Source of the DNA: Methanofollis fontis
Lineage (GTDB): Archaea; Halobacteriota; Methanomicrobia; Methanomicrobiales; Methanofollaceae
Reading direction: 5' to 3'
Assembly: GCF_004297185.1 (NCBI RefSeq)
Contig: NZ_PGCL01000003.1
Span: forward strand, 310,001-374,000
Length of the DNA: 64,000 nucleotides
The notes under the pieces are model-generated. The model worked only from the letters and a program-made list of their open reading frames with translations, was not told where the DNA came from and searched no databases. Within the stretch, counting starts at the first letter, position 1. Each line of letters opens with the position of its first letter. This document shows positions 1 through 18,028 of this stretch, piece after piece. Made by a program: the position numbers and the translations under genes.

Positions 1-195
1 GGAATATGGCTCTCTTCAGGCACTGAAGAAAAACGGTTACCTTTCTGCCGGGAAGCGAGTCAGAATGCTCCAACATACTTCTCCGCTTCACGATCATCCA
101 CCGGGTCAATACGGCGGAGCGGGATCATCCCCGGTGTGGTCCGGAGAGATGACCATAGGCATACAAATACGTGATCCAAAACACAAGAACAATGG

Positions 196-942
196 ATGGT
201 TGTGCGGCAGGCCGACAGGATCACCTCTCTGATCGCATCCTATACCTCTGAACTCCAGGAGCTTGAAGCCTACCCTGAGGAAGAACTCATTGCCATTATA
301 ATGGATGTCGGATTCTCCTGCACCTGTTGCGGCAGGTGCTGCACCCGTGAATTCAATGATCACGTCTTTCTCCTTGATGATGATGCAGAGAGGGTGCTGG
401 CAATTGATGAGGGGGCACTGGTACCTGCACCGGATTTCGAGTTCTGCGATCAGAATGGTCGGTTTTACGCTCCGGGTTATGCTCTCAGGACCCGGGATGA
501 TGGTGGATGTGTTTTTTTACAGCACAACCGCTGCACCATCTATGAGAGGCGGATGAAGATCTGCAGGATCTATCCCTATATGCTCCACCGGGAGGCAGAT
601 GAAGAGGGGAACGTGGACTGGAGACAGATCAGCGGTCTGAACCTCCACGGAGAATATGAAAGAGAGATCGATGTCAGCGAGGCACGAACGATTGCCGACG
701 ACGTGATTGAATACGAAAAGGCATTTCTCGGTCAGGAGATCGCATTTCTTGAGAGACTCCGGTCATATTTCTCGGAGAACAATCTCAGGCATGTTCAGAA
801 GATATACGACCGGCAGAACCTGCGCTTTGGCAGGGGAGAGGAGGTCGAGGTGCAGGTGTATTATAAGGGCGGGTTCCACCCGATGACGGTCAGGTGCACG
901 GAATATGGGACTGTTCCGGCAGGTCGGGGGAAAAAGCGGTGA
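196..942 (+). CDS. YkgJ-family cysteine-cluster protein
   Basis: A 248-residue protein with the cysteine signature of the YkgJ/UPF0153 family: CTCCGRCC at about residues 43-49, then isolated cysteines at about 84, 105, 113 and 123 (KICRIYP). In this family the cysteines are thought to bind zinc or an Fe-S cluster; the biochemical role is unknown. The C-terminal third, rich in Arg, Glu and Tyr, is probably helical. I see no clear ribosome binding site before the ATG at 196, so a later in-frame start is possible, but it must lie before the first Cys motif. The gene stands alone upstream of tRNA-Thr. Confidence 0.8.
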   Translation: MVVRQADRITSLIASYTSELQELEAYPEEELIAIIMDVGFSCTCCGRCCTREFNDHVFLLDDDAERVLAIDEGALVPAPDFEFCDQNGRFYAPGYALRTRDDGGCVFLQHNRCTIYERRMKICRIYPYMLHREADEEGNVDWRQISGLNLHGEYEREIDVSEARTIADDVIEYEKAFLGQEIAFLERLRSYFSENNLRHVQKIYDRQNLRFGRGEEVEVQVYYKGGFHPMTVRCTEYGTVPAGRGKKR

Positions 943-1038
943 GGATTCTGGCGCCCATCCTTCCCGGCGGGTGTCGCAGAAGAAGAACACCATCGCCATA
1001 TTTTTTATGAGAAACAACCAACAGAGTGATGCAATCGC

Positions 1039-1110
1039 GCCCCAGTGGCTTAGAGGCATAGCGGCTGACTTGTAATCAGCAGGTCGCGAGTTCAAATCTC
1101 GCCTGGGGCT
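1039..1110 (+). tRNA. tRNA-Thr (anticodon TGT)
   Basis: The cloverleaf folds cleanly. The acceptor stem GCCCCAG pairs fully with CTGGGGC, and the anticodon stem GCTGA/TCAGC holds the loop CTTGTAA, giving anticodon TGT. The T stem is GCGAG/CTCGC around TTCAAAT, and the discriminator base is T. There is no intron and CCA is not encoded. A T-rich box about 45 bases upstream is a plausible TATA element. The gene marks the left edge of a region rich in mobile and decayed genes. Confidence 0.95.
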
Positions 1111-1411
1111 TAAAGAACCCTATTATTTAACCTATTTTTGAAAGTAAGTCCGAAAATGCGAGATATCCATACCCGCACGGTACCGATAACCTTCACAGAT
1201 TCGATTTGCGGCACTTTCTAAGAAAACTTATGGGAATATCGACAAAAAGGTGATCCTGCCTTAAATCGAATCTTCATGGCTTTCGTGAACAGTGGGGCGA
1301 TGGTAATCCACGGACGACAAGCCGTGGGCACACCACCTGCCCGGCACGGGATAGAGGATGTCCGAATTCCACTCTTTGTAAAACATATTCGAGTTCATGC
1401 TGAGTAGGGAT
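1111..1411. other. Intergenic stretch without recognisable gene
   Basis: About 300 bases between tRNA-Thr and the IS-disrupted membrane-protein gene. Short open frames exist on both strands but none has a ribosome binding site or protein-like composition. I see no second tRNA copy or obvious attachment-site repeat here. Confidence 0.4.
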
Positions 1412-1686
1412 TCAACATCCCTTATGCAAAAACTGCTGAAAAATTGGAACGATTTTCTTGTAGTTTTCCACATTCACAGACGCATTTTGATCGCCAATCG
1501 GTTTGGAAGACTCTGAAAGATAATAGACAGTTTGAAGATCTGAATTCCCTGAATCTGTAAGATTTACACTGTTCTCTTCGACGGAGGGACTGTCCAAAAG
1601 AAAGCCAAAAACACTCAAACCCATCACAATTATTGCTAGAGCATATCCCAAAAGTGAGTGCTGGGGTCTCATTCTATAATTATAAA

Positions 1687-2513
1687 ACATTTACAATGAA
1701 ACCTTTGTGTCGTGGCATTCAGCGAGATCGATGACGACCTCTGGGCGATCATCAGCAACCATCTGCCGCCTCAGAAACCTCATACCGGACGACCGCGATC
1801 CGATCTTCGTCAATTAATGAATGGAATTTTGTTTGTCCTTACAACAGGATGTACATGGAGCGATGTTCCGAAAAAATATGGAACAAAGTCCACGGTACAC
1901 AGATTTCATCACTATCTTAGCGAAAATGGGATCTACCAGGATATATTTCTAGAGCTCCTCCAAAAAGGATACGACCTAAGAAAAGTTGATCTCTCTCATT
2001 GTTTTGTTGATACAAAATCTATTCCTGCAAAAAAGGGGGGATCATCGGATTTGATGGCTATAAAAAAGTAAAAGGGAACAAACTGAGTGTGCTGGTCGAT
2101 CAAAACGGTACGCCCCTGTCGTGTGTTGTATCTCCAGCAAATATTCATGATTCCAGGCTCTATAAACCGACCATCGAAGCATTTGCTCCTTCTGAAAAAG
2201 AACTCAAGGTAAAAACGATAACAGCAGATGCTGCCTACGATACGCTGGAAATAAGGACATACAACAACCAGAACGGAATACAAACCAACATTCCCATTAA
2301 TAAAAGAAACACGAAAGATCCAGAGAACAGAAGAGCGGAACAGTTCGATTTGGATCTTTACAAGAAAAGGGGAGCTGTTGAACGATTTTTCAGTTGGATT
2401 GAAGCGTTTAAGAAAATAGTCCCCAGGCATGAGCGAAAAGAGGGATCATTCATCGGACTCGTCCTTTTTGCATGTGGCATCATGATCTACCGGGTTTTGG
2501 GATGACCTCCTAG
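1687..2513 (+). mobile_element. IS5-family insertion sequence, about 827 bp
   Basis: The element carries one transposase in two overlapping frames (1712-2071 and 2043-2505) and is flanked by a possible 5-bp duplication, ATAAA, at 1682-1686 and 2514-2518. Its size and frame layout fit the IS427 group of IS5. I could not find convincing terminal inverted repeats, so the exact ends may be off by a few bases. A related, internally deleted copy lies at 34,614-34,779. Confidence 0.8.
1712..2505 (+). CDS. IS5-family (IS427 group) transposase, -1 frameshift
   Basis: A DDE transposase made from two frames. The first (from GTG at 1712) has the N-terminal helix-turn-helix region and the first catalytic Asp in HCFVDTKSIPAKKG. 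It ends at 2071. A run of six A then six G at 2029-2040 allows a -1 slip, after which the reading gives IIGFDGYKKVKGNKLSVLVD, the conserved block of this group. The second Asp is in TADAAYD and the Glu in AVERFFSWIEAFKK. The protein would be about 264 residues, normal for the family. The slip site looks programmed rather than a random mutation, so the element may be active. Confidence 0.85.
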
Positions 2514-2912
2514 ATAAATGATTATTGCAACTGTCGTATGAATTCGTGTGTACCACGGATTTGTCAATTGTCCGGTTATTTGAAGGGTGCCTTCAAATGG
2601 GGGTTCCTTTTCGATGTCAAGTGCATGTTGAACGGCATGAACAAGCAGTTTATAGTGAACTATATCGAGAAGACATATCGGAAACAAATACAAGGCAGCC
2701 GCTAGAAATGGTAAACTGGATGCATTCCAACCGAGAAAGGGGACTGTTTCATTGCTCAAAAAAGGTAAAAGTAACGCCCCCAAGACCATTATGGATAATG
2801 CAATAGGGATTCCTTGAATTCTCAGCCGTATAATTACATCATCAAAATGGCTTATCCGGTCCTTTGTCATTTTCCAATCTTCTAATCGCAAAGCATCTTT
2901 ATCCATGTCCAT

Positions 2913-3272
2913 GATTTATCCCTTCCACGTTCGCAATCCAATTTCTTGCCAGACATATCAAATTTTATCACTGTAATTAAAAAGGGTGTCCAAACGGGGG
3001 GAATGAGGACCATTATCGTATTGGAGTGGCTCGTTTACCCAAAGAAGCCGCAAATTTTGTTGGAAACAATTCCATACCGAAAAGCCGAATTTCAAGATAC
3101 CCTGCTTGAGACTACGTGGGACATTTCACCGTGTTTATACAGAATGTTCCTGTACAGCTGAGTCGTCTTGAGGTTCGATTGACATAGATGTGATAAAAAA
3201 GGCGGAGTGTATGCAACTTCTCGGTGAGCACCGTAGCGGGCGCAACCTCACCCCCACTCACGGGCGGGCGGC
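2913..3272. other. AT-rich intergenic stretch
   Basis: About 360 bases between the disrupted membrane-protein gene and a decayed gene. A 71-codon frame on the plus strand (2946-3161) has no ribosome binding site and no recognisable composition, so I do not call it. Base composition changes sharply from AT-rich to GC-rich near 3,230. Confidence 0.4.
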
Positions 3273-3801
3273 CTACGCCCCACCGGAGGATAGCACCCGT
3301 GTTTGGGCCTGCCGGATTTCGGATAGTTCAGCCTGGATTTGTGCGAGGGGCTGGATGACTATGGGGGATGGGGCGGCGGATTGTGCGGGGGGAGGGTTGC
3401 CCCGGCCCCATTCCATGATGGTTTTGAGGCCATTGTCCAGGGCGGTAGCGGTGGCGGGATTGATTATCTCGACCTCGGCACATGGTTGGCCGTGTGCCTG
3501 GGGCGAGTTGTCGATCCAGAGGTCGGAGAGTGAGGTTTGCCCACTGGCGGCTTCGGCGGTGGCGGGGTTGATGGTAAAGCCGTAATGGGTCTTCGTGACC
3601 TGCCGCCCGGATATACCGGGCTCATGTCCGGCGACAGGTCGAAGTCAGACGCGCCCGGCTGCCGTTGGGCTGGAGGAAGTAATAGGACCGCCGAATTTTC
3701 GATGGGGCGCGGCGAGAGGTGCCCGGGTCCGAGATGCCGGACGTAGCGTTTGAGATGGACCCGGTTGACGGGGTCGAGGTTGGGTCGAGATATTGGTCCA
3801 T
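3273..3801 (-). pseudogene. Decayed gene of unknown function, at least two frameshifts
   Basis: An ATG at 3801 follows a strong GGAGGT ribosome site, but protein-like sequence then moves between frames: MDQYLDP, then NLDPVNRVHLKRYVRHLGPG up to about DFDLSPDMSPVYPGG, then a third stretch with TKTHYGFTINPATAEAASG and IINPATATALDNGLKTIMEW, ending at a stop at 3273. The shifts fall near 3,770 and 3,605. Joined, this would be about 175 residues with two copies of an NPAT motif. I do not recognise the family. Composition and neighbours suggest a former plasmid or virus gene. Confidence 0.45.
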
Positions 3802-3946
3802 GATACTACCTCCGCGCCGGATTGAATGGAAAACCGCGTCAGGTGAAGGTGTATTGCTTTCGATCCCGTCCCGAAGGGGTCTGTGGATCTGAATCCCACC
3901 CCTCGCCCTATTCTATTGAGACTGTTCAATTCGAAAAATGTCAGGT

Positions 3947-4372
3947 CTATTGATATTCCGGTGAGGGACGGGGCGTCCTCCGGTAGACCATACCCTGGAA
4001 GATGGCGATCTTTCTTCCTTCCTCATCGGTGATGGTGACGGTGTAAGAGGCAAGTTTCGGGTTGAGCCCGAACTCCTCTGCTTCGGCCGTAAGAACTCCG
4101 TCCTTTGCAGCGGTCATATATGTGATATGGGCATTTATCGCCGCAGCATCGATCCCGTGGGAGTTGGATGCAAGTGCAAACGCAACATCGGCAAGCGTGA
4201 AGAGGGCGCCGCCATGGACCGTCCCGTGGCTGTTCCTGTGACGGTCAGCGACCTGCATCGAGACCGTGGCCCGCCCGGAGGATACGGCGACAAGTTCAAG
4301 ACCGTTCTCCCTTGCGAATAAATCGGCGGCGAAGAACTCCCGACCTTTTTCTTCTATATCGGATGGTGCCAT
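3947..4372 (-). CDS. PaaI-family hotdog-fold thioesterase
   Basis: A 141-residue single hotdog domain. The key segment RNSHGTVHGGALFTLADVAF (about residues 66-85) is the catalytic HGG/HxGG-type motif of PaaI thioesterases, which hydrolyse aryl- or acyl-CoA thioesters in the cytosol. The C-terminal strands (AKDGVLTAEAEE, SYTVTITDEEGR) complete the fold. I chose the ATG at 4372 because the family usually begins just before the ISDIEEKGREFF-like helix; an upstream ATG at 4432 would add 20 residues that look non-homologous. Single gene with no evident operon partners. Confidence 0.85.
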   Translation of the reverse strand: MAPSDIEEKGREFFAADLFARENGLELVAVSSGRATVSMQVADRHRNSHGTVHGGALFTLADVAFALASNSHGIDAAAINAHITYMTAAKDGVLTAEAEEFGLNPKLASYTVTITDEEGRKIAIFQGMVYRRTPRPSPEYQ

Positions 4373-4438
4373 AGGGACACATTTCAGGCGGCGGATAAAA
4401 AAAAGGTATTCTGGATCTGCGCCCCGCACCATTCCATT

Positions 4439-4742
4439 TTACACCATGGAGGGGGGGTCTTGGCGGGGGATCAACCGGATCCTCCTGGTGGGGCACCTAC
4501 GACCAGGTGCGGCCGGGATGGTGGCCTTCTGGTCGATGGAGGAGTCCCGCCGGGAGGTGAACGAGCAGGGGGACCGATACGCCGCCGCTCCAGGAGAACC
4601 AGGCGGCCTGCCAACGCTGGGGTGGGTTGGGAGGCGACGGATGCGCAGCGGGGCGGCGGATTTCCTGACCGCTGAACGCTCTCCGTCAACACATCCCATA
4701 CACGAATACTCAGAGGGGTTCTACCGCTCAATCAACTCATAG
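4439..4742 (+). pseudogene. Probable remnant of ArdC-type gene, N-terminal half
   Basis: No intact reading frame, but fragments in two plus-strand frames match the conserved N-terminal block of ArdC/DUF1738 anti-restriction proteins. One frame gives SWRGINRILL (the YxGxN-L motif) and MVAFW; a neighbouring frame gives SWWGTYDQVR (the W-x-T-Y-x-Q motif). A matching C-terminal zincin fragment lies at 9,017-9,157. The assignment rests on short motifs and is an inference; a profile search of all three frames would settle it. Confidence 0.45.
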
Positions 4743-4868
4743 TGTTCCGAAGGATAACTGAGTAAAAATTGAAAAAAGCCTTCAATAATCTATTTTTTTG
4801 CTTCAGGGTCATTTACAGGCACTTTTCGGAGAATTAACTAATGATAACCGAGTATACCCACGTTAGAC

Positions 4869-5111
4869 ATGCAATACACTGACAAGGTATCCATTGCATG
4901 GTCCGAGCGCGTTCCTTCGAGCTCAATGCTCCGTGATGCACTCGGCTTATGGAGCCACCACATCTTCCTCGATGCCGAACATACCAGCGGTATAACATCG
5001 GTCACTCAGAGAGCCCGGTACTACACCATCTGGGCATATTACTATCAACACCTGTTCAAAGACAACTTCGATCCCTACGATTTTGAGAAGATATTCATCC
5101 TGGCAAGTTAA
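4869..5111 (+). CDS. N-terminal fragment of cassette protein 1 (frameshifted)
   Basis: An 80-codon frame ending in a TAA inside ILAS. It carries SVTQRARYYTIWAYYYQHLF, a segment that resembles the T-x-R-ARY-x-W-x-Y block near the start of DUF6361-type proteins encoded beside phospholipase-D-like proteins in other prokaryotes (recalled, not searched). Protein-like sequence continues without loss in another frame (LTQNNGDCNSPNIRHMYNN) directly into the 457-residue frame at 5153. A one-base deletion in the current sequence near 5,108-5,110 explains the break. Together the two parts would make about 552 residues. Confidence 0.6.
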   Translation: MQYTDKVSIAWSERVPSSSMLRDALGLWSHHIFLDAEHTSGITSVTQRARYYTIWAYYYQHLFKDNFDPYDFEKIFILAS

Positions 5112-5152
5112 CCCAAAACAACGGAGACTGCAATTCCCCAAATATCCGGCAC

Positions 5153-6526
5153 ATGTACAATAATCAGAAATTTGCCGACACATGGGATGATATCCAGACA
5201 TTCAATCTGAATTTTGATATCAATGGATTTGGACGGACATACTATAATCGGCAGCTGGAAGTGTTCAGATGCGCATGGACCGACGAACTTGACGTGATTC
5301 AGATATCACCCATAAATAAGAAGCTCGCTGGAACACTTTCTTTCCTGGATCCCAACGATTTCAAGCGGACCGAATTCCGAAAAGAAGACCTTCGAGAGTA
5401 TTTCGAGGGATTCGGTATCGACCAGATCGCTCATAACTCCGCCGAGCAGGAGATACTGTCCAAACTGCTCTTCGGGTTCTTTTCGGAGAAGGGGTGCTCA
5501 TGGGATATCGATGATGAAGAGTTTGCGGCATACGTGCAGGGCAATGGGGACCTTGCCTTCATTGATAGGTTGACAGAGGAGCCATCTCCAGAATATTACA
5601 CAATACGACAGCAGAACTTGCGGAGAAGAAACACCCTCTTACTCTTCCTAAAAATCATAGACGAAGCTTCTCCGCCTATGGGAGAGATGCGACGCTATCT
5701 CTGGGACGCAGTGTACTTTAACCAGGACCATGAAACAAAAGATGAGATTTCTTTTGGCAGACTCGACCAGATCCGGCACTGCTGGGAACAGCATCAACTC
5801 CGGGTGTACTTTGTTTTTGCTCTGGAAAAGCTCCTCGAGCATATTCATCTAATTGTAATTGAGAATGCGGGAATCCCGAAGAACCGACTCATTGATAGCC
5901 AGAATGTCCGCGGAATCCTTTCTTATATCAGCGATTGGCTGCACCTCCCGGTTGATGAAGAGACGACACTTGCAGAAGTCATTGATAGAACCGGCGAACT
6001 GAACGGGACGGGTGTAAAGTCCTCACTTCACTCCCCTATCAACGAATCAGATCTGTATAATCGTTTACGGACACAAGAGCATGATGAGTTCTTTGCAGAT
6101 TTCGTAGTGATGCTTTCGCTCCTCTTTCGTAGATACAGCCATACCCCGCCGTTAAACTCACATCTCAGCAGTGATGATGATTCAAATCCGGACCTAATCA
6201 ACATGGAGACATTGTTTGCTCACATTGAGGCAAATGGTTCAGATATTCATATCATTTCATTTCTGTCGCATGTCAGCCGTTTGATTGTGAACAGACACAT
6301 GCTGGAATCTGTCTCAAGGTTTGCATATGGGACAAAGAATTGGCTTTTCACCGAAGAAGAGGGCCGCCTCTATTCGACAAGAGATCCTGTTCACATGACT
6401 CCCAGAGATAACCGGTGGCAGAGTATACGAACGCTTCTCCAGGATCTTGCATTCATTGAGCAGACTGACGAAGGAAATCTGAGAGTGACGAAGAAGGGAT
6501 TGGAATGGCTCGAGAAGATACAATAA
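5153..6526 (+). CDS. Main part of cassette protein 1, unknown function
   Basis: 457 residues from an internal ATG; the true start is probably 4869, separated by a frameshift. The protein is soluble, acidic and rich in aromatic residues, with no transmembrane segment and no catalytic motif that I recognise. The C-terminal about 90 residues (from NRHMLESVSRF to VTKKGLEWLEKIQ) look like a winged-helix domain. It overlaps the PLD gene by 22 bases, so the two are translationally coupled. The pair layout (large protein plus PLD-fold nuclease) is typical of small defence cassettes, but the role is inferred only from context. Confidence 0.65.
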   Translation: MYNNQKFADTWDDIQTFNLNFDINGFGRTYYNRQLEVFRCAWTDELDVIQISPINKKLAGTLSFLDPNDFKRTEFRKEDLREYFEGFGIDQIAHNSAEQEILSKLLFGFFSEKGCSWDIDDEEFAAYVQGNGDLAFIDRLTEEPSPEYYTIRQQNLRRRNTLLLFLKIIDEASPPMGEMRRYLWDAVYFNQDHETKDEISFGRLDQIRHCWEQHQLRVYFVFALEKLLEHIHLIVIENAGIPKNRLIDSQNVRGILSYISDWLHLPVDEETTLAEVIDRTGELNGTGVKSSLHSPINESDLYNRLRTQEHDEFFADFVVMLSLLFRRYSHTPPLNSHLSSDDDSNPDLINMETLFAHIEANGSDIHIISFLSHVSRLIVNRHMLESVSRFAYGTKNWLFTEEEGRLYSTRDPVHMTPRDNRWQSIRTLLQDLAFIEQTDEGNLRVTKKGLEWLEKIQ

Positions 6527-8922
6527 ATCTCATTGCCGAATTCACTGAGCGGCAACGTCATAATGATATCATCGTTCTCACAACTTTCTGTTTCGACCCA
6601 TACTTTTTCGATAAGTTTCTCTTCCACAAAATCCGTTCAAACAATCCGTTTTCCGAGATTATCGTCCTCGTCGACGGACAACAGTATGTTCAGTCAATGG
6701 AAAGAAGCACCAATGATACGGGCCGGAACTATCATCTCATCCCTATATACCTTCCTCATGGTGTTTTCCATCCCAAGATCTTCCTCTTCGGTTCAACGGA
6801 GAAAAGTACAGCAACGGTATACATCGGAAGTGCCAATCTCACCATGACTGGTTTTACCAGAAATGCTGAGATGGTTGCAAAGGTGGAATACTCCCCTGAA
6901 AACGTTGATTCGACCATCGAATCTGTGAAGGATTTCTTCCAGCAACTTATTCACCAGAAATACATTCACGATCCCAGAGCAGTCAGCACGATTCAGCACC
7001 TGCTTGGTAGTCTGCCCTCACCCGCCGATGAGGCCTCCAATGCCGACTGCATTATTCTGCATAATATGCGGTCGCCGATTTTGCCATTGATGCTTGAAAA
7101 TCTTGATCAGGACTCCTTTTCTGAAGTGTTCCTATTGGCCCCCTTTTTTGCGCCTGATGCACGTGTTCTCCAGACGATTGCAGATCAGGCAACAATCAGT
7201 CGGATCCAGATAGCCCTTCAGAACGGCAACCACAACCTGATAGACCTCACACCGTATACCGAGTTTTCCACGAGGCGTGGGATACCCTACGAGGTCGTCG
7301 AAGCGGCATTCAAGGACAATTATTCGCGGACCTTCCACTCAAAGATACTCTCCCTGAAAGGCAAAGAACAGCATCTTTTGATCGGGTCGCCTAACATGAC
7401 CCAGAGCGCCCTCCTCGAACCAGCAGATCACGGAAATGTGGAATGTGCCATACTCTTTAAGGGAATCCAGGCGAAGAAGATCCTCGATCGGATCGAGAAG
7501 AAACCCGTCGCTGATATCGACACCCTTCTTGCATCTGGGGAGGGGTTCGAACCATCCCATAGTTTTCCCCCCGTGCTTCGGATCTACTCCGCTGCCTATA
7601 ACGATCTTTCACATTCAATTGAGGTCCATACCGAACCTCTCTCCGAACACACATCTGTACACTGTAGGGTTGAGGGAATCCCCAATCCGGTCGATTATAT
7701 GTCCGACCTGAGCAGCGGAACATGCACGATCACCTCGTTGCCCAAAGGAATTCCCACAGAACTTCTTATCTCATCAAACAGAAAATCCGGCCGAAGGAGG
7801 ATCTATTATGATCGGAAAGCTTACATCCGCGCGATTCCCGGATCGAAAGAACCTCTTAAAGAAATGGCGGACCGGTTAACCCATGATGCCACTCTGGACA
7901 CCACGGATATCCATGCAATCCTCATCGGGCTTTCGAAGCGGATTGATGGGAAATCCGAGGATGGAAAAACGAGTGAAGATGGCTCTCCTGCAAAGAAACG
8001 GGCATCAAGCAGCCATATCCCAAAACCGAGCAAGAGCACATCTGGCCTGGGGATGGCAGGTTCACTCGGCCAGTTACAACGGCTGTATCATTCAATGATT
8101 CTCCGGCGCTGGGAGGAACACGCCTCCGAGAGCACAACACCCGAAGAAATCGAAGAAAATCTTGTAGGGCATCACGCCAGAAAAACATTGATCTCCGAGG
8201 ATAAGAAGAGGAGGCGACTGTTTGAGAAGTGTATCAACCAGACGAATGACATTCTGCTCCATCTGGTCCATCAGTCTGATAAGGACAATCTCGATGATAT
8301 CCTCGTGGAGGCACAGTCAGCATTCATCAATCTGGCAATGAAATCATTCCCACAGCTCATCGGGAAACCGCAGCTGAACCAGGTCATGGATATTCTTGAG
8401 AATAACCTCCAGCATGTAAAGCGAGAGGATTGTTCACAATCTTCTACGGTCACATTATTCGCCCATATCTTGACGATAAACTACTGCTACGATATGCATT
8501 GCCTCCCCCAGTTTCTAAAAAATGTCTTCTCTTGCACCGATTTTACCGATCCCGATAGTTACTACTTGGTGAAGGATGTTGTTCAACAGTACCAGAGCCA
8601 CTATATGTCCGAGATAGCGGTATTTGATTTGAAGAAGTTCCATAATCACTTCTGCAGCCTGCTCTGTTTTGTTTTCAATAAGTATACCATTGGATGGGGT
8701 CCGGTAGAACTGGTACAGGCAATCATCGACACAGAGGATGAAGAGCATGCAGAGTTTCTGGGAAAAATCCTGAATACTTTAAAACATGGGGTGTGGGGTA
8801 GCACCACAAGACCTATCTCTCTAATAAGCCCTCAAAAATACATTCGAGGACTGCAGTTGGACTTCTCAACAATCTGCCCTGCACGGGCTGCGTATATCAA
8901 GGATTTCATCGAAGAACGGTGA
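6505..8922 (+). CDS. Phospholipase-D-fold protein, probable nuclease
   Basis: 805 residues. The N-terminal half holds two PLD half-sites: H89-P-K91 with GSAN at 108-111, and H278-S-K280 with GSPN at 294-297. This HxK...GSxN form, lacking the final Asp, occurs in PLD-fold nucleases such as those in DISARM-like and other defence loci. The middle (about 480-520) is a low-complexity Ser/Lys/Glu linker, and the C-terminal about 280 residues are helical and unassigned. The start ATG lies inside the end of the upstream gene. There is no signal peptide, so an intracellular role is likely. Substrate unknown; nuclease is the best inference. Confidence 0.75.
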   Translation: MAREDTINLIAEFTERQRHNDIIVLTTFCFDPYFFDKFLFHKIRSNNPFSEIIVLVDGQQYVQSMERSTNDTGRNYHLIPIYLPHGVFHPKIFLFGSTEKSTATVYIGSANLTMTGFTRNAEMVAKVEYSPENVDSTIESVKDFFQQLIHQKYIHDPRAVSTIQHLLGSLPSPADEASNADCIILHNMRSPILPLMLENLDQDSFSEVFLLAPFFAPDARVLQTIADQATISRIQIALQNGNHNLIDLTPYTEFSTRRGIPYEVVEAAFKDNYSRTFHSKILSLKGKEQHLLIGSPNMTQSALLEPADHGNVECAILFKGIQAKKILDRIEKKPVADIDTLLASGEGFEPSHSFPPVLRIYSAAYNDLSHSIEVHTEPLSEHTSVHCRVEGIPNPVDYMSDLSSGTCTITSLPKGIPTELLISSNRKSGRRRIYYDRKAYIRAIPGSKEPLKEMADRLTHDATLDTTDIHAILIGLSKRIDGKSEDGKTSEDGSPAKKRASSSHIPKPSKSTSGLGMAGSLGQLQRLYHSMILRRWEEHASESTTPEEIEENLVGHHARKTLISEDKKRRRLFEKCINQTNDILLHLVHQSDKDNLDDILVEAQSAFINLAMKSFPQLIGKPQLNQVMDILENNLQHVKREDCSQSSTVTLFAHILTINYCYDMHCLPQFLKNVFSCTDFTDPDSYYLVKDVVQQYQSHYMSEIAVFDLKKFHNHFCSLLCFVFNKYTIGWGPVELVQAIIDTEDEEHAEFLGKILNTLKHGVWGSTTRPISLISPQKYIRGLQLDFSTICPARAAYIKDFIEER

Positions 8923-9016
8923 AAGCGTATCACAATCGTTCAGGAGCCGGGATAGGGTACGTCATCAATAATCAAGCAACACTCTGGCAAGCACCCCCAC
9001 TGCCCGGTTGAGCATT

Positions 9017-9157
9017 GACCCCGGGATGTCCCCGGCGGAGCGCTTCACCTCCTGAGAGGCCTATTATGCCGCCCTCTTCCACGAACTCACCTGCTGGAGG
9101 GGGGCGGTCTTCCTGTGTGCGATGTGTGGGATCGATACAGATCGCTCCCGACTGTAG
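9017..9157 (+). pseudogene. Probable remnant of ArdC-type gene, zincin half
   Basis: In one plus-strand frame, with one in-frame stop, the sequence reads DPGMSPAERFTS, stop, EAYYAALFHELTCWRGA. This is close to the RF-x-S-x-x-YYATLFHELxHWTG zincin block of ArdC-type anti-restriction metalloproteins, with the third metal-ligand His replaced by Cys. It ends at a stop at 9157. Together with 4,439-4,742 it suggests one ArdC-type gene whose middle was replaced by the PLD cassette. Confidence 0.5.
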
Positions 9158-9301
9158 ATCTCAGATCTCTTGGAGCACAGTGCGTCAACACGGGTTTCGT
9201 GGTGAAAATTAATCAAAAATTGGATTTTATGCAGATCTGGAGATTTTGAGGTGTTATGTCCATCATTACTTTTAGGATCCGCATTTACTCAAATCATTGG
9301 G

Positions 9302-11317
9302 TTAATAGTGATCCATGCCCTCCTCTTTTAGCCAGTCATTTATTATCCCCCGGGTTTCTTCGATGAGGATGGCCATTGAGTGGGCAAAGGTCTCTGGCGC
9401 TTCAGAATCTGGAAAATAATACTGCAGCCGAAGCCACCCGCTGGTGGAGGTGTCCCAGTTCAATCTGGCAGGGGCGGTCAATTTCCCGAGGATTTCCAAT
9501 TTATGTGCCTGGACAATTTCTGCGATGTCCCTGAACGCATCAAGGCCGAAATGAACTTCGACCGAGATTTCTGGTGTTCCAAATTTGATCCAGTCGTCAA
9601 ACTCATAGCAGACATATTTTTTCGGTGTGCCCTCGATGCGATGCCACGCCGGGAAGGAGTAGCGACACTGATCCTTGCGGCAGAACACACGCTTTAAACC
9701 CCCGGGAAAATGATTTCCATCTTCAAATGCCACCAGGGCATTCGCAAATTCATCTCTCTTGTTTCGCTGAGGGGTGTTAACCCTATTCTTGGTTGGTTTC
9801 TGCGGATTTTTTTCTGTGTTAGCACGTACAGGAACTCGCATTGCGTCGATTGAATTCCAGATGTCGGTGAACAGCCTGACTTCAGCATGGCCCTCCGGTA
9901 CGGGAATATGACTGATGCTTCGATCCATCGGCAACGCGATATCATCATAGGTGCAGTGTGCCTGTTCCCCGAGTTTCCAGTAGATCCCTGTTGGCCAGGC
10001 AGAAGGTATGTCTCGACGATAGAAGATGCCGGTGCCGAAAATCGGGATTCCCCATGTCTTTGAAGCACCTGCAAACCCCTTCCTCGGGAAGTAATTTTCT
10101 TGAGTGGGGCCTTCGTTTGGAGGGCAGAACCTGTGGATAAGGTTGAGGCCGACGTCGACATCGGGATTGGGATATCTCTTGGGATCTGCTCTGGGACCAT
10201 AGACATCATAACAGACAAAGAGGAAATATCTGGTCCCGTTCAGATTGAAGATTCTAGGAAAACCATTCTCTTCCTTGATATAGGAATCTGCAAGCGTGAT
10301 GTGGTTTCGTTCATCATCGTTAGTGGGATGGAATTTTCGAGCGGCTGCGACGACGCCAGCCTTACCAATCGCGACCGCGATCTGATCCTTATCAAATGGG
10401 TTATCTGCCAGAGGCCGGTCGAACCTTCCATCGACACCGATACAGACGATAACGTTTCGATCATCCAGGTTGAGCACCGGTTGGATTTCATGCTCGATCA
10501 CCGAATAAATCGATTCAGCAGGTTCAAAGCCGGTGTGAATCCACCCCGCGGGGAAGAGGATGACACCATCTCCTTTAGTTTGAGCAAGTATTTCGCTGAT
10601 GATTGGTTTCAGTTCAGCGATTCTTACATCGTTGTATTTTGGGTCTTTTTCGTCCTGTAAGGTCCGGTCTGACTTGAGGATGACTGTCGCAATCCAGTCA
10701 TTGTTTCTGTTCCTGTTCATTGACTCAACTGCCTGAACCATCTTCAATGAGCCGCTTTTCTTCGCCATCAGGTCCTTGAACCTCTCCACATCTGCCGGGT
10801 CCTCCGGGTCGAGGTCGCACCAGGCCATCTCTCCCGCATACAGCCTCACAGTCGGCAGAAATCCTTTGATCTCGGGCAGGAAATCACGGAGCGTGTCATA
10901 CCAGGCACGCTGCTCGTCCCGGTAGGGCGGGTCGCTGTCGTGCGCATCGATCTCCTCACAGAGGGTCTTCCACCGGTGAACCGGATAGCCGACCTTCAGG
11001 TGGGGGGGATAGGCCTCCAGTGCGATGTGCCGCGGCCGGGTGAAGTGCTGCGACTCATCAAACTCGACGGCGAAACCCGGTTCCGGCACATAGAAGTCGA
11101 CATCCACATACCCCGCCCGTACAAAGTCCTCAGCATTCCGGTAGTGCTGAAGCGACCGGTAAATGCCAGAGAGGGCCGGGTAGAATGGCGTGTCCCGGTA
11201 TTCCTCCAGCAGGGTTGCACAATGCACCCGATGTTCTGATATGACCGTGCCGTAGATCCGTTCGAGCATTGCCCTCACGGTCTGTTTGCAGTCCCTGCAC
11301 CGCTCGTTATGGGCCAT
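9302..11317 (-). CDS. Fusion: DUF559/Vsr-like nuclease and nitrilase-like domain
   Basis: 671 residues. The N-terminal part has a CxxC (residues 7-10), then VDVDFYVPEPGFAVEFDESQ (71-90), which fits a PD-(D/E)xK nuclease of the DUF559/Vsr type: D74, E85 and D87 with H91 following. Residues about 190-400 resemble a nitrilase (CN-hydrolase) fold: ILFPAGW at 253-259, RKFHP around K328, and FVCYD with C369. The usual catalytic Glu after FP is Ala257, so the hydrolase site looks altered. The last about 170 residues are unassigned. GAGGGAGTGA precedes the ATG. It is last in a minus-strand operon. Function unknown; a defence sensor-effector is a reasonable guess. Confidence 0.65.
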   Translation of the reverse strand: MAHNERCRDCKQTVRAMLERIYGTVISEHRVHCATLLEEYRDTPFYPALSGIYRSLQHYRNAEDFVRAGYVDVDFYVPEPGFAVEFDESQHFTRPRHIALEAYPPHLKVGYPVHRWKTLCEEIDAHDSDPPYRDEQRAWYDTLRDFLPEIKGFLPTVRLYAGEMAWCDLDPEDPADVERFKDLMAKKSGSLKMVQAVESMNRNRNNDWIATVILKSDRTLQDEKDPKYNDVRIAELKPIISEILAQTKGDGVILFPAGWIHTGFEPAESIYSVIEHEIQPVLNLDDRNVIVCIGVDGRFDRPLADNPFDKDQIAVAIGKAGVVAAARKFHPTNDDERNHITLADSYIKEENGFPRIFNLNGTRYFLFVCYDVYGPRADPKRYPNPDVDVGLNLIHRFCPPNEGPTQENYFPRKGFAGASKTWGIPIFGTGIFYRRDIPSAWPTGIYWKLGEQAHCTYDDIALPMDRSISHIPVPEGHAEVRLFTDIWNSIDAMRVPVRANTEKNPQKPTKNRVNTPQRNKRDEFANALVAFEDGNHFPGGLKRVFCRKDQCRYSFPAWHRIEGTPKKYVCYEFDDWIKFGTPEISVEVHFGLDAFRDIAEIVQAHKLEILGKLTAPARLNWDTSTSGWLRLQYYFPDSEAPETFAHSMAILIEETRGIINDWLKEEGMDHY

Positions 11318-11321
11318 CGAA

Positions 11322-11543
11322 TCACTCCCTCAGTCTGCCCTCAATAGCTCCGGTCATTGTACCTGCAGCCGCCGTCATAGTTGGTGCAGCCCCGGTAGAG
11401 TTCTCCGGTTTGTTGTGCCACCCTCCATACGAGGTCGGAGCGGCATGAGGGCACACCCCGGCCTTCTTCCCCTGCATGGGGGCGTCTGTGCCGTGCTGGT
11501 TGTCTTCACGCCTGTTCCGGGGGTTTCCATTTTCATTCTTCAT
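11322..11543 (-). CDS. Small hypothetical protein, 73 residues
   Basis: A polar, low-complexity protein (Asn, Arg, Gly, Thr, Ala) with two Cys/His residues near the middle. Its stop codon lies four bases before the ATG of the 671-residue fusion, and the end of its coding sequence forms that gene's ribosome binding site, so coupling would be natural. It has no recognisable domain and could be a leader ORF or chance. Confidence rests on position only. Confidence 0.35.
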   Translation of the reverse strand: MKNENGNPRNRREDNQHGTDAPMQGKKAGVCPHAAPTSYGGWHNKPENSTGAAPTMTAAAGTMTGAIEGRLRE

Positions 11544-11653
11544 CGTGCATGCCTTCTGTCAGTATACGTTGCATTTCATATTCTGCAATTCATACATCTT
11601 CCGGTTTTTTCCTCTTCCCGAGGGCGGCAGGGCTCTTTCTGCTCTTCCATCGG

Positions 11654-12364
11654 TTACTTCCCTCCCGTTTGTGCCAGGGCATAGGAAAACATCGCCATTT
11701 CAACATCGGCCGGGAGCCAGACGCCGGGTTCACGCAGGCCCAGCCCGACCATCAGGGGCGGGTGCGGGCATGCGGTGCCCTCGCCATTCAGGCGGTCGGC
11801 GATCTGGTGGAGGGCCATTGTCCAGGTGCCGAAGTCGGCGGGCCAGGCCTCCTGGGCGGAGAGGATCGCCCACCTCGGGCCGGACCGGGTGGCCTGGAGG
11901 TCGAGGAGACGGTAGTGTTCGGCGTCGGCGCCGAAGACCCGGACAATCCGGGTGTCGATGGCTCCGAAGACCGAGGGGACAGCGAACCTCAGCATTTTGC
12001 TGCAATAGGTCGGCCCGAACCCCCGGATCTGGCCCTCCAGCATCCTCATCACATTCTCTGCCCCGTCCCGGAGCCAGGGGGCGGGCAGGCCGCGTTTGTA
12101 GAGCGGGAGGTTGAGTGGTTCTCTGCACTGGATCCCGGCGGTATTGGGGAGGCCGCCCCATGCCGCTACGTTGATGGCGTGGGACTGGCCGAGGCTGTTC
12201 TTCCGGGCCGCATCAGAGAGTCTCCGCTCCAGGGTGCAGATCTGCACAAACCCGTCTTTCCAGGAGTCGCCCTTCCAGCGGTAGGTCCGGTACTCCCTGG
12301 CCAGGTCCACCCCGGCGAGGAGACGGTCGATCCCGGCGATGGTCGCACCCGGGAGGCCTGCCAT
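11654..12364 (-). CDS. Helix-hairpin-helix DNA glycosylase-like protein
   Basis: 236 residues. The segment IRGFGPTYCSKMLRFAVP (about 113-130) followed by AIDTRIVRVFG (135-145) has the layout of an HhH-GPD glycosylase core: a glycine-rich hairpin that grips DNA, then the catalytic Asp (D137) before an Arg-containing helix. The hairpin has Thr where bifunctional glycosylase-lyases have Lys, as in MutY-type monofunctional enzymes. The protein lacks the C-terminal Fe-S cysteines of MutY/Nth. Its ATG overlaps the stop of the upstream gene by one base. A DNA-base-damage or modified-base role is inferred. Confidence 0.6.
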   Translation of the reverse strand: MAGLPGATIAGIDRLLAGVDLAREYRTYRWKGDSWKDGFVQICTLERRLSDAARKNSLGQSHAINVAAWGGLPNTAGIQCREPLNLPLYKRGLPAPWLRDGAENVMRMLEGQIRGFGPTYCSKMLRFAVPSVFGAIDTRIVRVFGADAEHYRLLDLQATRSGPRWAILSAQEAWPADFGTWTMALHQIADRLNGEGTACPHPPLMVGLGLREPGVWLPADVEMAMFSYALAQTGGK

Positions 12365-12735
12365 CAGGCCGGAACCTCCCTGATGTCGATGGTGCCGATC
12401 CGCCGCACATTCCGGGGATACTTCAGCCGGTAGTCGGTCCTGAGCGGTCGTGCCAGGCGGTCCTCGATCCTCGGCCCGAGATAGCCCCGCACATACTCGC
12501 CGACGGTGGCGGTGAACTGCACGATGTCACCCTGACGGAAGGTGCCGGCGGCGTCGAAGCCGGCGGTGTAGTTGATCCACGTGTGGTCGGCGAGGGGGTG
12601 GCCGTCCAGGCCGAGGAGGTCCCTGAGCAGGATGGTCTTCCCGGTGGTCCCGCCCCTCCGGAAGGTGCCATACGCCCAGAACACGGCGGTGAAGCCGGCC
12701 TTTCTACCATTCAAACCCTGGAGTGTTGTCCTCAT
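12364..12735 (-). CDS. Small beta-rich protein, first gene of the operon
   Basis: 123 residues. The sequence alternates short hydrophobic strands (FTAVFWAYGTF, TILLRDLLGLDG, TWINYTAGFDAAG, GDIVQFTATVGEYV) and ends with a basic segment, a pattern that fits an OB-like or SH3-like beta barrel. I recognise no family. It starts the operon that continues with the HhH protein, the 73-residue ORF and the nuclease-nitrilase fusion. The upstream region is shared with the divergent gene at 12911. Confidence 0.55.
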   Translation of the reverse strand: MRTTLQGLNGRKAGFTAVFWAYGTFRRGGTTGKTILLRDLLGLDGHPLADHTWINYTAGFDAAGTFRQGDIVQFTATVGEYVRGYLGPRIEDRLARPLRTDYRLKYPRNVRRIGTIDIREVPA

Positions 12736-12910
12736 GCATCTCTCTCCTAGTGCATGGATCAGTCTACCGATACAGATGTGAATATAATTGCGTGAATATT
12801 GTGAATGTCGTGATTAATGTGACTATTCGGCGGGCAGAACCGGGCCGTCCCTGAAACATCCGCACCACCAGAACGCAACCCTTATCCTCTCTCTCCCACC
12901 TCCCTCCTCT

Positions 12911-13465
12911 ATGGGAACGATCACCGCACAGATCCTGGTCGGGAGCCCCCACCCCTACCACGACGGGCTCATGCCGACGCACCAGGTCTTCCTCTCCGAG
13001 AATAGCCGCCCCGCATGGGTGCTCACCCGCCCGGGGCTCGCACCGCCCCTCCACACACGCCCGCCCAGGGGGGAGGAGGGGCCCCGCCGACACCCGCACC
13101 GCCGGATCACCTGGATCCCCGGCGGGCCCGGCCATATCCTGGAGGACGCCCTCGTCATGATCGCCTACCATGTCATCAGGGACCCGGGGGTGGTGGCGCT
13201 GGCCGACGACTCTATCGGCGGGATCGGCGGCGAACGCCTCTCCCTGGACGCTGCCAGTGACGATTGCCTGGAGGAGATCCGGGGGCGCTGCCGGCAGGTC
13301 GAGAACTGGCCCAAGCTCATCCTCTCGGCCTTCCAGGGCTCCTCGGTGCTCAGTCAGCTCCCGGTGATCGAGCGCTACCCGATGGAGGTCGAGGTCTGCT
13401 CCCCCTCCTTTGTCCGCCGCTATGGGCGGGACGGATCGGTGGAGACGGTGGGGAGGACGGGGTAG
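12911..13465 (+). CDS. Hypothetical protein divergent from the fusion operon
   Basis: 184 residues with an N-terminal segment AQILVGSPHPYHDGLMPTHQ and a basic, Pro/Arg-rich middle (about 45-70). A helical C-terminal half contains CLEEIRGRCRQVENWPKLIL. No signal peptide, membrane segment or known motif. It starts 175 bases from the divergent operon and may share its promoter region. It ends 12 bases before the CRISPR-like repeats. Function unknown. Confidence 0.6.
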   Translation: MGTITAQILVGSPHPYHDGLMPTHQVFLSENSRPAWVLTRPGLAPPLHTRPPRGEEGPRRHPHRRITWIPGGPGHILEDALVMIAYHVIRDPGVVALADDSIGGIGGERLSLDAASDDCLEEIRGRCRQVENWPKLILSAFQGSSVLSQLPVIERYPMEVEVCSPSFVRRYGRDGSVETVGRTG

Positions 13466-13477
13466 CGCCCGCCCCTG

Positions 13478-13658
13478 GTTGCAGAAAGGTTCCACGAAAA
13501 AAAGGATTGCAACGATACTATACTCCTCTTTCGCAGCCCTAATTGCCCTGGTTGCAGAAAGGTTCCACGAAAAAAGGATTGCAACACCAGTGCCCCGAAC
13601 TCCTTCGTCCGGGTTAAGTTTGGTTGCAGAACAGTTCCACCAAAACAAGGACGACAAC
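13478..13658 (+). CRISPR. Short CRISPR-like array: three repeats, two spacers
   Basis: Repeats at 13478-13513 (36 nt), 13551-13585 (35 nt) and 13623-13658 (36 nt) begin GTTGCAG and the first two end GGATTGCAAC. The second differs from the first by one A. The third has about seven substitutions, as expected of a terminal repeat. The two spacers (13514-13550 and 13586-13622) are both 37 nt and unrelated. The ATTGCAAC end matches the 5' handle of archaeal type I/III repeats and, with the degenerate right-hand repeat, places the leader on the left. No cas gene is in the window, so the array is either orphan or served in trans. Confidence 0.75.
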
Positions 13659-14004
13659 GCCAGAAACCCACCGAAGACCGTGACAACCATCAGGGGTGCA
13701 CACATCTTCCCGGAAACCCGGGCGCAAACGTCCTGATGCACCCCCTGATCCGGCCTATTTCCGCCCGATTTCCCGCCCTTTTCGTCCCCTCTCCCCACCA
13801 TTCCAACCCATCGATCCTGACACCAACTATCTGCCCCTAGAACTCCACATGAAATGCCCAAATTTCTCCTCAAATCCAAAAATATCGCCAGAACTCCCGG
13901 ATCCAAAAATCCGCCTGCACTGTCGAGATCAAAGCGCTCAAAATCGGAAAATACGCCCAAAATAGAGAGATTGCGGCACGGGAGAAGAAGGGGAAAGATC
14001 CCCC
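13659..14004. other. Intergenic stretch after the CRISPR-like array
   Basis: About 350 bases that turn AT-richer toward 13,960. Several short open frames exist, none with a ribosome binding site. I see no further repeat unit, tRNA or clear terminator. Confidence 0.35.
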
Positions 14005-14241
14005 TCAGTTCAGGGCCTCGACGGTGGCGAGGATGGCGTCGTCCTCATACGAGGTGATCCGCACGCTCTCGCGGGCGATCGTGTCCCTGGCGAAGTCGAA
14101 CCGCTGTGCCTGGTCCGAAAGGATCGATCCCGGCCTTCCGGCGGGCTCGCCGGTCCAGGGCGTTGGCGAGGGTGTGGGGCGGGCATTCTCCTGCACGCCG
14201 TTGTCCCTCATCGCTGTCGCACACGATTTTTTATGAGACAT
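14005..14241 (-). CDS. Small hypothetical protein, 78 residues
   Basis: Start taken at the ATG at 14241 (MSHKKSCATAM); an ATG ten codons later is also possible, and neither has a good ribosome site. The C-terminal half, FDFARDTIARESVRITSYED and onward, is protein-like and probably forms a helix-strand unit; the N-terminal half is Pro/Thr-rich. No family recognised. Confidence 0.45.
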   Translation of the reverse strand: MSHKKSCATAMRDNGVQENARPTPSPTPWTGEPAGRPGSILSDQAQRFDFARDTIARESVRITSYEDDAILATVEALN

Positions 14242-14361
14242 GGAGGTCTCACAACCGTTCCTCCAACCTCTTTTGTGCGGATGGTGGTATGCACAACATC
14301 TCTTGCACGTATTGGATAGGCATCCTGATACGCACAAACAGATTTACCTGTACCAGAATAC

Positions 14362-14736
14362 TCACAACCGCCCCCCCTCAGAGATAGCCATGAGCCGATA
14401 AAATGCGTAGATATTTGGTTTTCTCCCTTTTCCTTGTTGAAGTATATCCACAATGCCGTTGTCTGCCAGTTCCTTAAGGATCTTCGTCCCGCTCTCCTTT
14501 GGAATACCCGACACCCTGATGAAATCAGGCGTACTGAAGAAGATGGTTGCCGCACTTACTTTTGGGATATGCTCATTATGTGTCCCAGGTACACATTTTT
14601 CCAACGTATTTTGTGTACCAGTCACACATTTTTCTAACTTAATGATGTGTTCACGGGATATCTTGCCCGCATGCAGCATGCAAAAAACTCGATATTTCTC
14701 CTGAAGAACATCTGGACCGCCCTGCTCTGGATGCAT
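14362..14736 (-). CDS. Winged-helix protein resembling a Fic C-terminal domain
   Basis: 124 residues from an ATG with a GGAGAG site just upstream; a longer start at 14778 is less likely. The C-terminal part, STPDFIRVSGIPKESGTKIL followed by LADNGIVDILQQGKGRKPNI, is a winged helix-turn-helix of the kind that ends Fic-family proteins. The Fic catalytic HPFxxGNG motif is absent. The middle holds a direct repeat, LEKCVTGTQN/LEKCVPGTHN. It may be a free-standing regulator or the tail of a lost Fic gene. Confidence 0.5.
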   Translation of the reverse strand: MHPEQGGPDVLQEKYRVFCMLHAGKISREHIIKLEKCVTGTQNTLEKCVPGTHNEHIPKVSAATIFFSTPDFIRVSGIPKESGTKILKELADNGIVDILQQGKGRKPNIYAFYRLMAISEGGRL

Positions 14737-14813
14737 GTCTCTCCGGTGAGACCCGAGGGCGCGAACCATCATATTCACGCCTTCCGATTGGATTGCTGCT
14801 GTTCATGCTCCTG

Positions 14814-14968
14814 GCAACCGTTATCACTCCTGATACGCTACGTTTCCGTGAAACACGGGAGAGCCCTCACCATTGCGGCCACTCCTCTCATCACCATATT
14901 TTTTGCCGTTTCTGCAGGCTGCACCGGGCCCGTCCAGGAATCCACGGCTTCGCCGGCCCCCTCGCTCG
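14814..14968 (+). repeat. Left copy of hydrolase 5'-end duplication
   Basis: About 155 bases closely similar to 19,321-19,478, covering the upstream region and signal-peptide codons of the alpha/beta hydrolase at 19365. The right copy has a 10-base insertion at the start codon (ATGAACCATC). Similarity stops just after the lipobox region. The copies bracket a 4.35-kb AT-richer cassette. Confidence 0.75.
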
Positions 14969-15045
14969 CCACCCATGGGCCAGGCTCCGCCTCTCGCACC
15001 CATTTCACAGGTTATAGAAACCCCAAAAAATTGCCGCTCTACTAA
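14848..15045 (+). pseudogene. Truncated copy of lipoprotein hydrolase (signal peptide only)
   Basis: From a GTG at 14848 the frame encodes a 65-residue product whose first part, VSAGCTGPVQ preceded by a hydrophobic stretch, matches the signal peptide and lipobox of the hydrolase at 19365. After the lipobox, similarity ends and the frame runs into unrelated sequence and a stop. It is the broken left product of the duplication described at 14,814-14,968. Confidence 0.65.
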
Positions 15046-15215
15046 CCGGGCGTACACATATTCATCACAGGACTATGTGTCGCGGCACACTCGCCTGGAG
15101 GGAAAAAGTCAGTTGTTTAAGGTTGAGTTCAAAAAAAACGTGAAGGGACAATAAATTGATATTTAACATCAAATAATTATTATTTTGTTCAAGTCACCGC
15201 TGCATCTCAGGAATC

Positions 15216-17579: not shown

Positions 17580-17635
17580 ATTCCGGCGTCATGTCTCAAA
17601 CCTTCAAAATAGAATATTCCCGTGTCATTCTGTCA

Positions 17636-18028
17636 TTAATTGGAAAAATTCATGCTCTCTGTGGCAGAGGGGATATCTCCGGGCAGAATATAATCAGAGA
17701 TTATGTTCAGGGTAATCCTGGCGGCAACAAGGTCATCATCGCCTTTGAAACCGTCAATACCCATACTTTCTGCAAAACGGAACATTCTTTTTCTGTCGTT
17801 GATTAGAAATAAGCCAGTATCAGTTTGTGAACCTTTATCCTCAAATGTCGCTTCGAAGCAAGAGAAAGGGACATATCCCCCATGTAAAAACGAAAGATGA
17901 AGGAACTCAATAAGCTGCACATAAAACTGCGGAGGTTTAAAGCCAGCATCATCCCAGATGCCTCTGGTCTCCAGATCTTTTTCATCTCTGTGACGGTGAC
18001 AGCTACAGACGCTCATTTCTGTGTTCAT
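17636..18028 (-). CDS. Hypothetical protein upstream of the RND exporter
   Basis: 130 residues from the ATG at 18028 (MNTEMSVCSC); an upstream ATG at 18115 would add a basic segment with little protein character. CSCHRHRDEKD near the start could bind a metal. The middle (FYVQLIEFLHLSFLHGGYVP) and FLINDRKRMFRFAESMGIDG suggest a compact alpha/beta domain. The gene lies 56 bases before the exporter on the same strand, so both are probably one transcript. No family recognised. Confidence 0.6.
   Translation of the reverse strand: MNTEMSVCSCHRHRDEKDLETRGIWDDAGFKPPQFYVQLIEFLHLSFLHGGYVPFSCFEATFEDKGSQTDTGLFLINDRKRMFRFAESMGIDGFKGDDDLVAARITLNIISDYILPGDIPSATESMNFSN

What the first reader, a model, noticed from the sequence alone, without database searches (positions are those of the whole stretch)
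4439..9157. PLD-fold two-gene cassette lodged inside a decayed ArdC-like gene
Fragments upstream (WRGIN, W-G-T-Y-x-Q) and downstream (RFTS...YYAALFHEL) of the cassette look like the two ends of one ArdC-type anti-restriction gene. Between them lie an about 552-residue protein and an 805-residue PLD-fold protein overlapping by 22 bases. Such an arrangement implies that a defence cassette replaced the core of an anti-defence gene carried by a former mobile element.
Basis: partly seen in the sequence, partly recalled or inferred. Interest (0 to 1): 0.68.

Follow-up and report, generated by a model that had tools for sequence, protein, structure and literature searches.

The report
Helicase-free Azaca-like gene pair between ArdC relics
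A two-gene cassette found across archaea and bacteria, one gene encoding a predicted DNA-cutting enzyme and the other a partner of unknown fold, looks like a so far unnamed antiviral system; here it sits between wrecks of an anti-restriction gene, and its first gene carries a frameshift.

Summary
Partly right. Both flanks are decayed ArdC, but not the two ends of one gene. The left relic (about 4455-4685) holds both the N-terminal and the C-terminal part of ArdC. The right relic (about 9011-9139) is the middle, HExxH, part. The cassette therefore lies between two relics, or in one rearranged gene; it did not simply replace an ArdC core. Gene B (6505-8922, 805 aa) is an intact two-lobed PLD/Tdp1-fold enzyme. 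Gene A (4869-6526) is not one open frame here: a relative 83% identical in B has an intact 552-aa A, and the window copy lacks one T near 5108. A and B occur as an adjacent pair in all 37 loci examined, in archaea and several bacterial phyla, on plasmids and in virus contigs. They are co-inherited and often lie beside or inside restriction, Zorya or Hma loci. Profile comparison ties A to the N-terminus of ZacA and B to ZacB of the three-gene Azaca defence system, but the helicase ZacC is absent. Best reading: a helicase-free, two-gene relative of Azaca, with B a PLD nuclease effector and A its sensor/regulator. Function is inferred, not shown. ArdC linkage is local, not conserved.

The parts
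4455..4573 (+). left ArdC relic, N-terminal part (about residues 43-91 of ArdC)
   Evidence: 93% identity over 59 bp and 85% over 39 bp to the G006 ArdC gene; frameshift-aware score 83 vs shuffled 36.7 +/- 5.6
4557..4685 (+). left ArdC relic, C-terminal part (about residues 227-281); joined to the N-terminal part across a 384-bp internal deletion at 17 bp of microhomology
   Evidence: blastn to the genome's own ArdC, E 4.9e-6 genome-wide, and to G006 ArdC; score 80 vs 42.7 +/- 6.5
4754..4868 (+). left edge of the cassette and leader of gene A; DNA homology to the relative L034 begins here
   Evidence: blastn window vs L034: 4754-9000 at 87% only; the L034 contig ends at the right side, so the right edge is not fixed
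4869..6526 (+). gene A (ZacA-like partner), broken by a 1-base deletion near 5108; ORFs 4869-5111 and 5153-6526
   Evidence: intact 552-aa orthologue L034:6364-8022; lesion alignment and dN/dS 0.06-0.21; profile match of the family in both frames
6505..8922 (+). gene B (ZacB-like), 805 aa, two HxK...GSxN half-sites (H89/K91/S109/N111 and H278/K280/S295/N297, plus N311/E313), beta-sandwich 360-433, helical C-terminus
   Evidence: PF13091 3.9e-13; ZacB 8.5e-17, PDC-M27B 4.3e-13; AlphaFold model pLDDT 75, PLD part about 90; PDB fold matches PLD 7e0m and Tdp1, E 1e-10 to 1e-8; motifs conserved in 34 homologues
9011..9139 (+). right ArdC relic: middle of ArdC (about residues 165-194 and 225-235, with the FHEL zincin motif), in-frame stop, 69-bp internal deletion
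   Evidence: tblastn 5e-6; 75-81% DNA identity to G006 ArdC, E 1.8e-13; score 109 vs 41.2 +/- 5.6

Best explanation
The cassette is a two-gene module, A then B, distantly related to the ZacA-ZacB part of the Azaca antiphage system but without Azaca's helicase ZacC. B is most likely the effector: a two-lobed PLD-superfamily phosphodiesterase that forms one active site from two HxK/GSxN half-sites and cuts nucleic acid through a phosphohistidine intermediate. A is most likely its obligate partner, which recognises the invading DNA or an infection signal and holds or guides B (its short C-terminal element looks like a winged helix, weak evidence). Shown: the gene pair, its conservation and co-inheritance, the catalytic residues, the predicted fold of B, homology to ZacA/ZacB, defence-locus neighbourhoods. 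Inferred: nuclease activity, the sensor role of A, antiviral function. In this genome the cassette landed among ArdC debris and its gene A now has a frameshift, so the local copy is probably inactive or the assembly has an error there.
For: A lies immediately upstream of B in all 37 loci examined, with overlaps from -2 to 28 nt where measured. A and B identity matrices correlate, r = 0.82 over 25 divergent loci, 0 of 5000 permutations. B hits ZacB at 8.5e-17 and A homologues hit ZacA at 2.5e-5 to 3e-3. In 393 archaeal genomes the ZacA model rings only in two canonical Azaca loci and one A gene of this family. hhalign A vs canonical ZacA: probability 86%, E 4.8e-6 over 80 N-terminal columns; B vs ZacB: 97%, E 2.5e-11 over 296 columns. 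Neighbours include type I REase (L021, nested between hsdS and hsdR; L041), type III REase (L050), Zorya ZorD (L029), HmaA (L034), PDC-S41 (L035) and a type II methylase on a virus contig (L100). B fold = Tdp1/PLD. dN/dS about 0.2 between window and L034.
Against: No function has been tested. A shares only its first 80 or so columns with ZacA and has no DUF6361 hit. Defence neighbours were read from chosen loci without a formal background rate; several loci show no recognised defence gene. B's PLD fold is also used by lipid enzymes. The local gene A is broken.
Confidence: 0.7

Rival explanations
1. The pair is simply Azaca (or PDC-M27) whose helicase gene is lost or encoded elsewhere.
For: Homology and order of A/B to ZacA/ZacB; B also hits PDC-M27B. 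Twelve of 34 scanned loci have some ATPase/helicase-like ORF nearby: 11 by motif scan plus the annotated SNF2 gene of L023.
Against: The helicases identified belong to other systems (HsdR, REase_III, HmaA, ZorD). ZacC-model hits in 27 records are short and scattered, the best at E 5.6e-15, against 1106 bits for true ZacC. A (about 500-630 aa) and B (about 740-890 aa) differ in length, and A in most of its sequence, from canonical ZacA (415 aa) and ZacB (631 aa).
Confidence: 0.15
2. The cassette interrupted a single ArdC gene and the pieces were then shuffled, rather than lying between two ArdC copies. (This concerns the setting only and is compatible with the best explanation of the cassette.)
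For: Left and right relics are nearly complementary: the right piece falls inside the left relic's deletion except for about 24 bp.
Against: All pieces are in the same orientation, yet the C-terminal part lies upstream of the cassette and the middle downstream; one insertion cannot give that order. Each relic's internal gap sits at short direct repeats, as expected of independent deletions in two copies.
Confidence: 0.2
3. B is a lipid- or repair-type PLD enzyme (Tdp1-like) and the pair is a housekeeping or mobile-element maintenance module, not immunity.
For: Best fold match is a phospholipase D, then Tdp1; many copies are on plasmids.
Against: Patchy distribution (1 of 100 genomes of the relatives set, 8 of 393 genomes of the phylum, two of these only partial PLD hits), ZacB and other defence-PLD profile hits, placement inside or beside restriction loci.
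Confidence: 0.12

Closest known systems
Azaca (ZacA-ZacB-ZacC)
   Same: Gene order A then PLD gene B; N-terminal 80 columns of A match ZacA, PLD half of B matches ZacB
   Different: No ZacC helicase; A longer, without DUF6361 match; B longer with a different C-terminal half
PDC-M27 (PADLOC phage defence candidate, with A?, B and C models)
   Same: B matches PDC-M27B, 4.3e-13
   Different: No PDC-M27C helicase beside the pair; A hits no PDC-M27 model
DISARM DrmC / NgoFVII-type PLD nucleases
   Same: Same PLD catalytic motifs (DrmC 3.5e-7, RE_NgoFVII 2.3e-7)
   Different: Only short motif-level matches; no DISARM genes found among the neighbouring proteins scanned
Tdp1 / phospholipase D fold
   Same: Two-lobed fold with one composite active site
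   Different: Extra beta-sandwich and helical C-terminus; 11-14% identity

Membership tests
Azaca | ZacA (DUF6361, about 400 aa) | tested here: inconclusive
   N-terminal profile match only (E 4.8e-6, 80 columns); no DUF6361 hit to intact A
Azaca | ZacB PLD protein | tested here: met
   8.5e-17; hhalign 97%, 2.5e-11 over 296 columns; partial, the C-terminal half differs
Azaca | ZacC helicase next to ZacA/ZacB | tested here: not met
   Own genome: one partial helicase hit 86 kb away; 27 other records: only short partial hits; no helicase-like ORF in window 1-18000
PDC-M27 | other PDC-M27 genes beside B | tested here: not met
   A homologues hit no PDC-M27 model; no M27C hit in the neighbours scanned except a weak cross-hit in a ZorD
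DISARM | DrmA/DrmB plus methylase with DrmC | tested here: not met
   Adjacent window proteins 9302-11317 and 11654-12364 give no PADLOC hit; no helicase-like ORF nearby; DrmB was not searched genome-wide
PLD superfamily | two HxK...GSxN half-sites | tested here: met
   H89, K91, N111, H278, K280, S295 in 34/34 homologues; N297 in 33/34
ArdC (flanks) | ArdcN and MPTase-PolyVal domains as intact or profile-detectable domains | tested here: not met
   No PF08401 hit in the flanks; both flanks are nevertheless relics of such a gene by DNA and frameshift-aware alignment

The most novel reading that the evidence does not exclude
A broadly distributed two-gene immune system in which A, a protein with a confidently predicted fold that matches no solved structure, senses the invader and switches on a PLD nuclease, either alone or by borrowing the helicase of whichever defence system it sits in (HsdR, REase III, ZorD, HmaA).
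Probability: 0.2. Interest if true: 0.72.

Novelty: new variant of a known kind. Interest (0 to 1): 0.5.

Why it matters
It adds a compact, testable two-gene candidate to the PLD-based defence systems, present in archaea and several bacterial phyla and not named by the annotation libraries used here (PADLOC 2023, NCBIfam 2026, Pfam). It separates the ZacA/ZacB-like core from the helicase, so one can ask what the helicase contributes in Azaca. The ArdC setting is a decayed local arrangement and should not be read as a rule.

Tried and rejected
Simple insertion into one ArdC gene: rejected because the ArdC C-terminus lies upstream. Conserved ArdC linkage: rejected. Empty site in relatives: not available; synteny stops at the thioesterase. 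Phage carriage: no match in INPHARED; one weak and two strong loci in IMG/VR. Solved-structure sequence search for A and B: nothing significant. Fold search for A in PDB and viral libraries: nothing. My first two helicase motif scans used too strict a pattern and were replaced, which still missed the annotated SNF2 gene of L023. In one search the ArdC residue numbers printed are wrong (antisense ORF chosen); only its DNA coordinates are used. The literature library holds no paper on PDC-M27, no mechanism paper on Azaca was found, and the original Azaca paper was not read; whether the two-gene form has been named in papers outside the library is unknown.

Full report
Where it lies. The window is part of a 2.36-Mb archaeal genome. 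The sample of its phylum includes Archaeoglobi, whose loci L014 and L015 reappear as L036 and L037 under organism names.

The cassette. Gene B is one open frame of 805 codons at 6505-8922, with PLD-like domains (PF13091, 3.9e-13). Its upstream neighbour overlaps it by 22 bases. The upstream gene is not one frame: 4869-5111 reads into a stop, and the rest is read in another frame, 5153-6526. A relative in a Euryarchaeota MAG (L034) is 83% identical in B and has gene A intact at 552 aa. The window has GTT where L034 has GTTT, so one T is missing. dN/dS is about 0.2 in B and in A after the lesion, and 0.06 in A before it, so the lesion is recent or an assembly error. DNA homology with L034 covers only 4754-9000; beyond the left edge L034 carries an Hma helicase, HmaA. 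The right edge cannot be fixed because the L034 contig ends there.

The flanks. The genome has one intact ArdC, on contig C4. It and the ArdC of a congener, G006, match both flanks at the DNA level. The left flank holds ArdC N-terminal DNA (4475-4573) followed directly by C-terminal DNA (4557-4666). The right flank holds the middle (9025-9107 and 9083-9138). Frameshift-aware scores exceed shuffled sequence by about 6 to 12 standard deviations. Both relics have an internal deletion at short repeated sequence. Because the C-terminal end is upstream, the cassette does not occupy the place of an ArdC core. Two decayed ArdC copies flanking the cassette is the simplest reading; a rearranged single copy is possible, since the pieces overlap by only 24 bp. 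Two close relatives carry the same thioesterase (3947-4432) but no ArdC and no cassette beside it, and none of the 99 other genomes of the relatives set has B.

Relatives of the pair. Genome, plasmid and virus searches gave 37 loci whose neighbourhoods I read. In every one a protein of about 500-630 aa precedes a PLD protein of about 740-890 aa, with overlaps from -2 to 28 nt in the 34 where this was measured (a few called starts or ends are off, e.g. L044 and L046). The identities within the A set and within the B set rise and fall together (r = 0.82 in 25 divergent loci). All 34 B sequences aligned keep H89, K91, N111, H278, K280 and S295. The neighbours examined include type I and type III restriction enzymes, Zorya ZorD, HmaA, PDC-S41 and a type II methylase. 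In Myroides the pair lies between hsdS and hsdR.

What it resembles. PADLOC models give ZacB for B (8.5e-17) and, weakly, ZacA for A homologues. I found two canonical archaeal Azaca loci (L119, L120) in order ZacA (DUF6361, 415 aa), ZacB (631 aa), ZacC (1111-aa helicase). Profile comparison supports homology of A with ZacA over 80 N-terminal columns and of B with ZacB over 296 columns. ZacC is a helicase (PMC12278908 lists it among SF1/SF2 defence helicases). No ZacC lies beside these pairs. So this is a relative of Azaca without its helicase, not a member as defined.

Structure. The model of A (intact L034 copy) is confident, pLDDT 85 and pTM 0.86, and matches nothing in the PDB or the viral library. 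No library of predicted cellular proteins was available. The model of B has a well-predicted two-lobed PLD region (about residues 1-335), a beta-sandwich and a less certain helical half, and matches phospholipase D and Tdp1.

Mechanism. Shown: pairing, conservation, catalytic residues, predicted fold and defence context. Inferred: B cuts nucleic acid; A senses and gates it. I give this about 0.7. The local copy is probably inactive because the frameshift cuts off the conserved N-terminal part of A that is shared with ZacA.

Noticed in passing
window 3862-3909 and G000:C3:202510-202607: A decayed 3' copy of tRNA-Leu(TAA) abuts the thioesterase, while the intact tRNA-Leu with the ppk2-like neighbour lies 111 kb away in the same orientation; in G004 the two are adjacent. 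This looks like a 111-kb tRNA-integrated island ending at window 3862.
   Followed up: partly
window 1712-2505: IS4/5-family transposase in two ORFs (DUF4096 and DDE_Tnp_1), probably a frameshifted or programmed-frameshift IS element.
   Followed up: no
window 9302-11317, strand -: 671-aa protein with a weak DUF7255 match at its N-terminus and no defence or NCBIfam match of note, right after the right ArdC relic.
   Followed up: no
window 11654-12735, strand -: Two ORFs, the first with a weak OGG-like DNA glycosylase match.
   Followed up: no
L004 2131-6794 and 9085-10287: The genome's intact ArdC lies near a type II methylase and restriction enzyme and an integrase-like ORF, with inverted repeats of about 97-120 bp around it.
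   Followed up: partly
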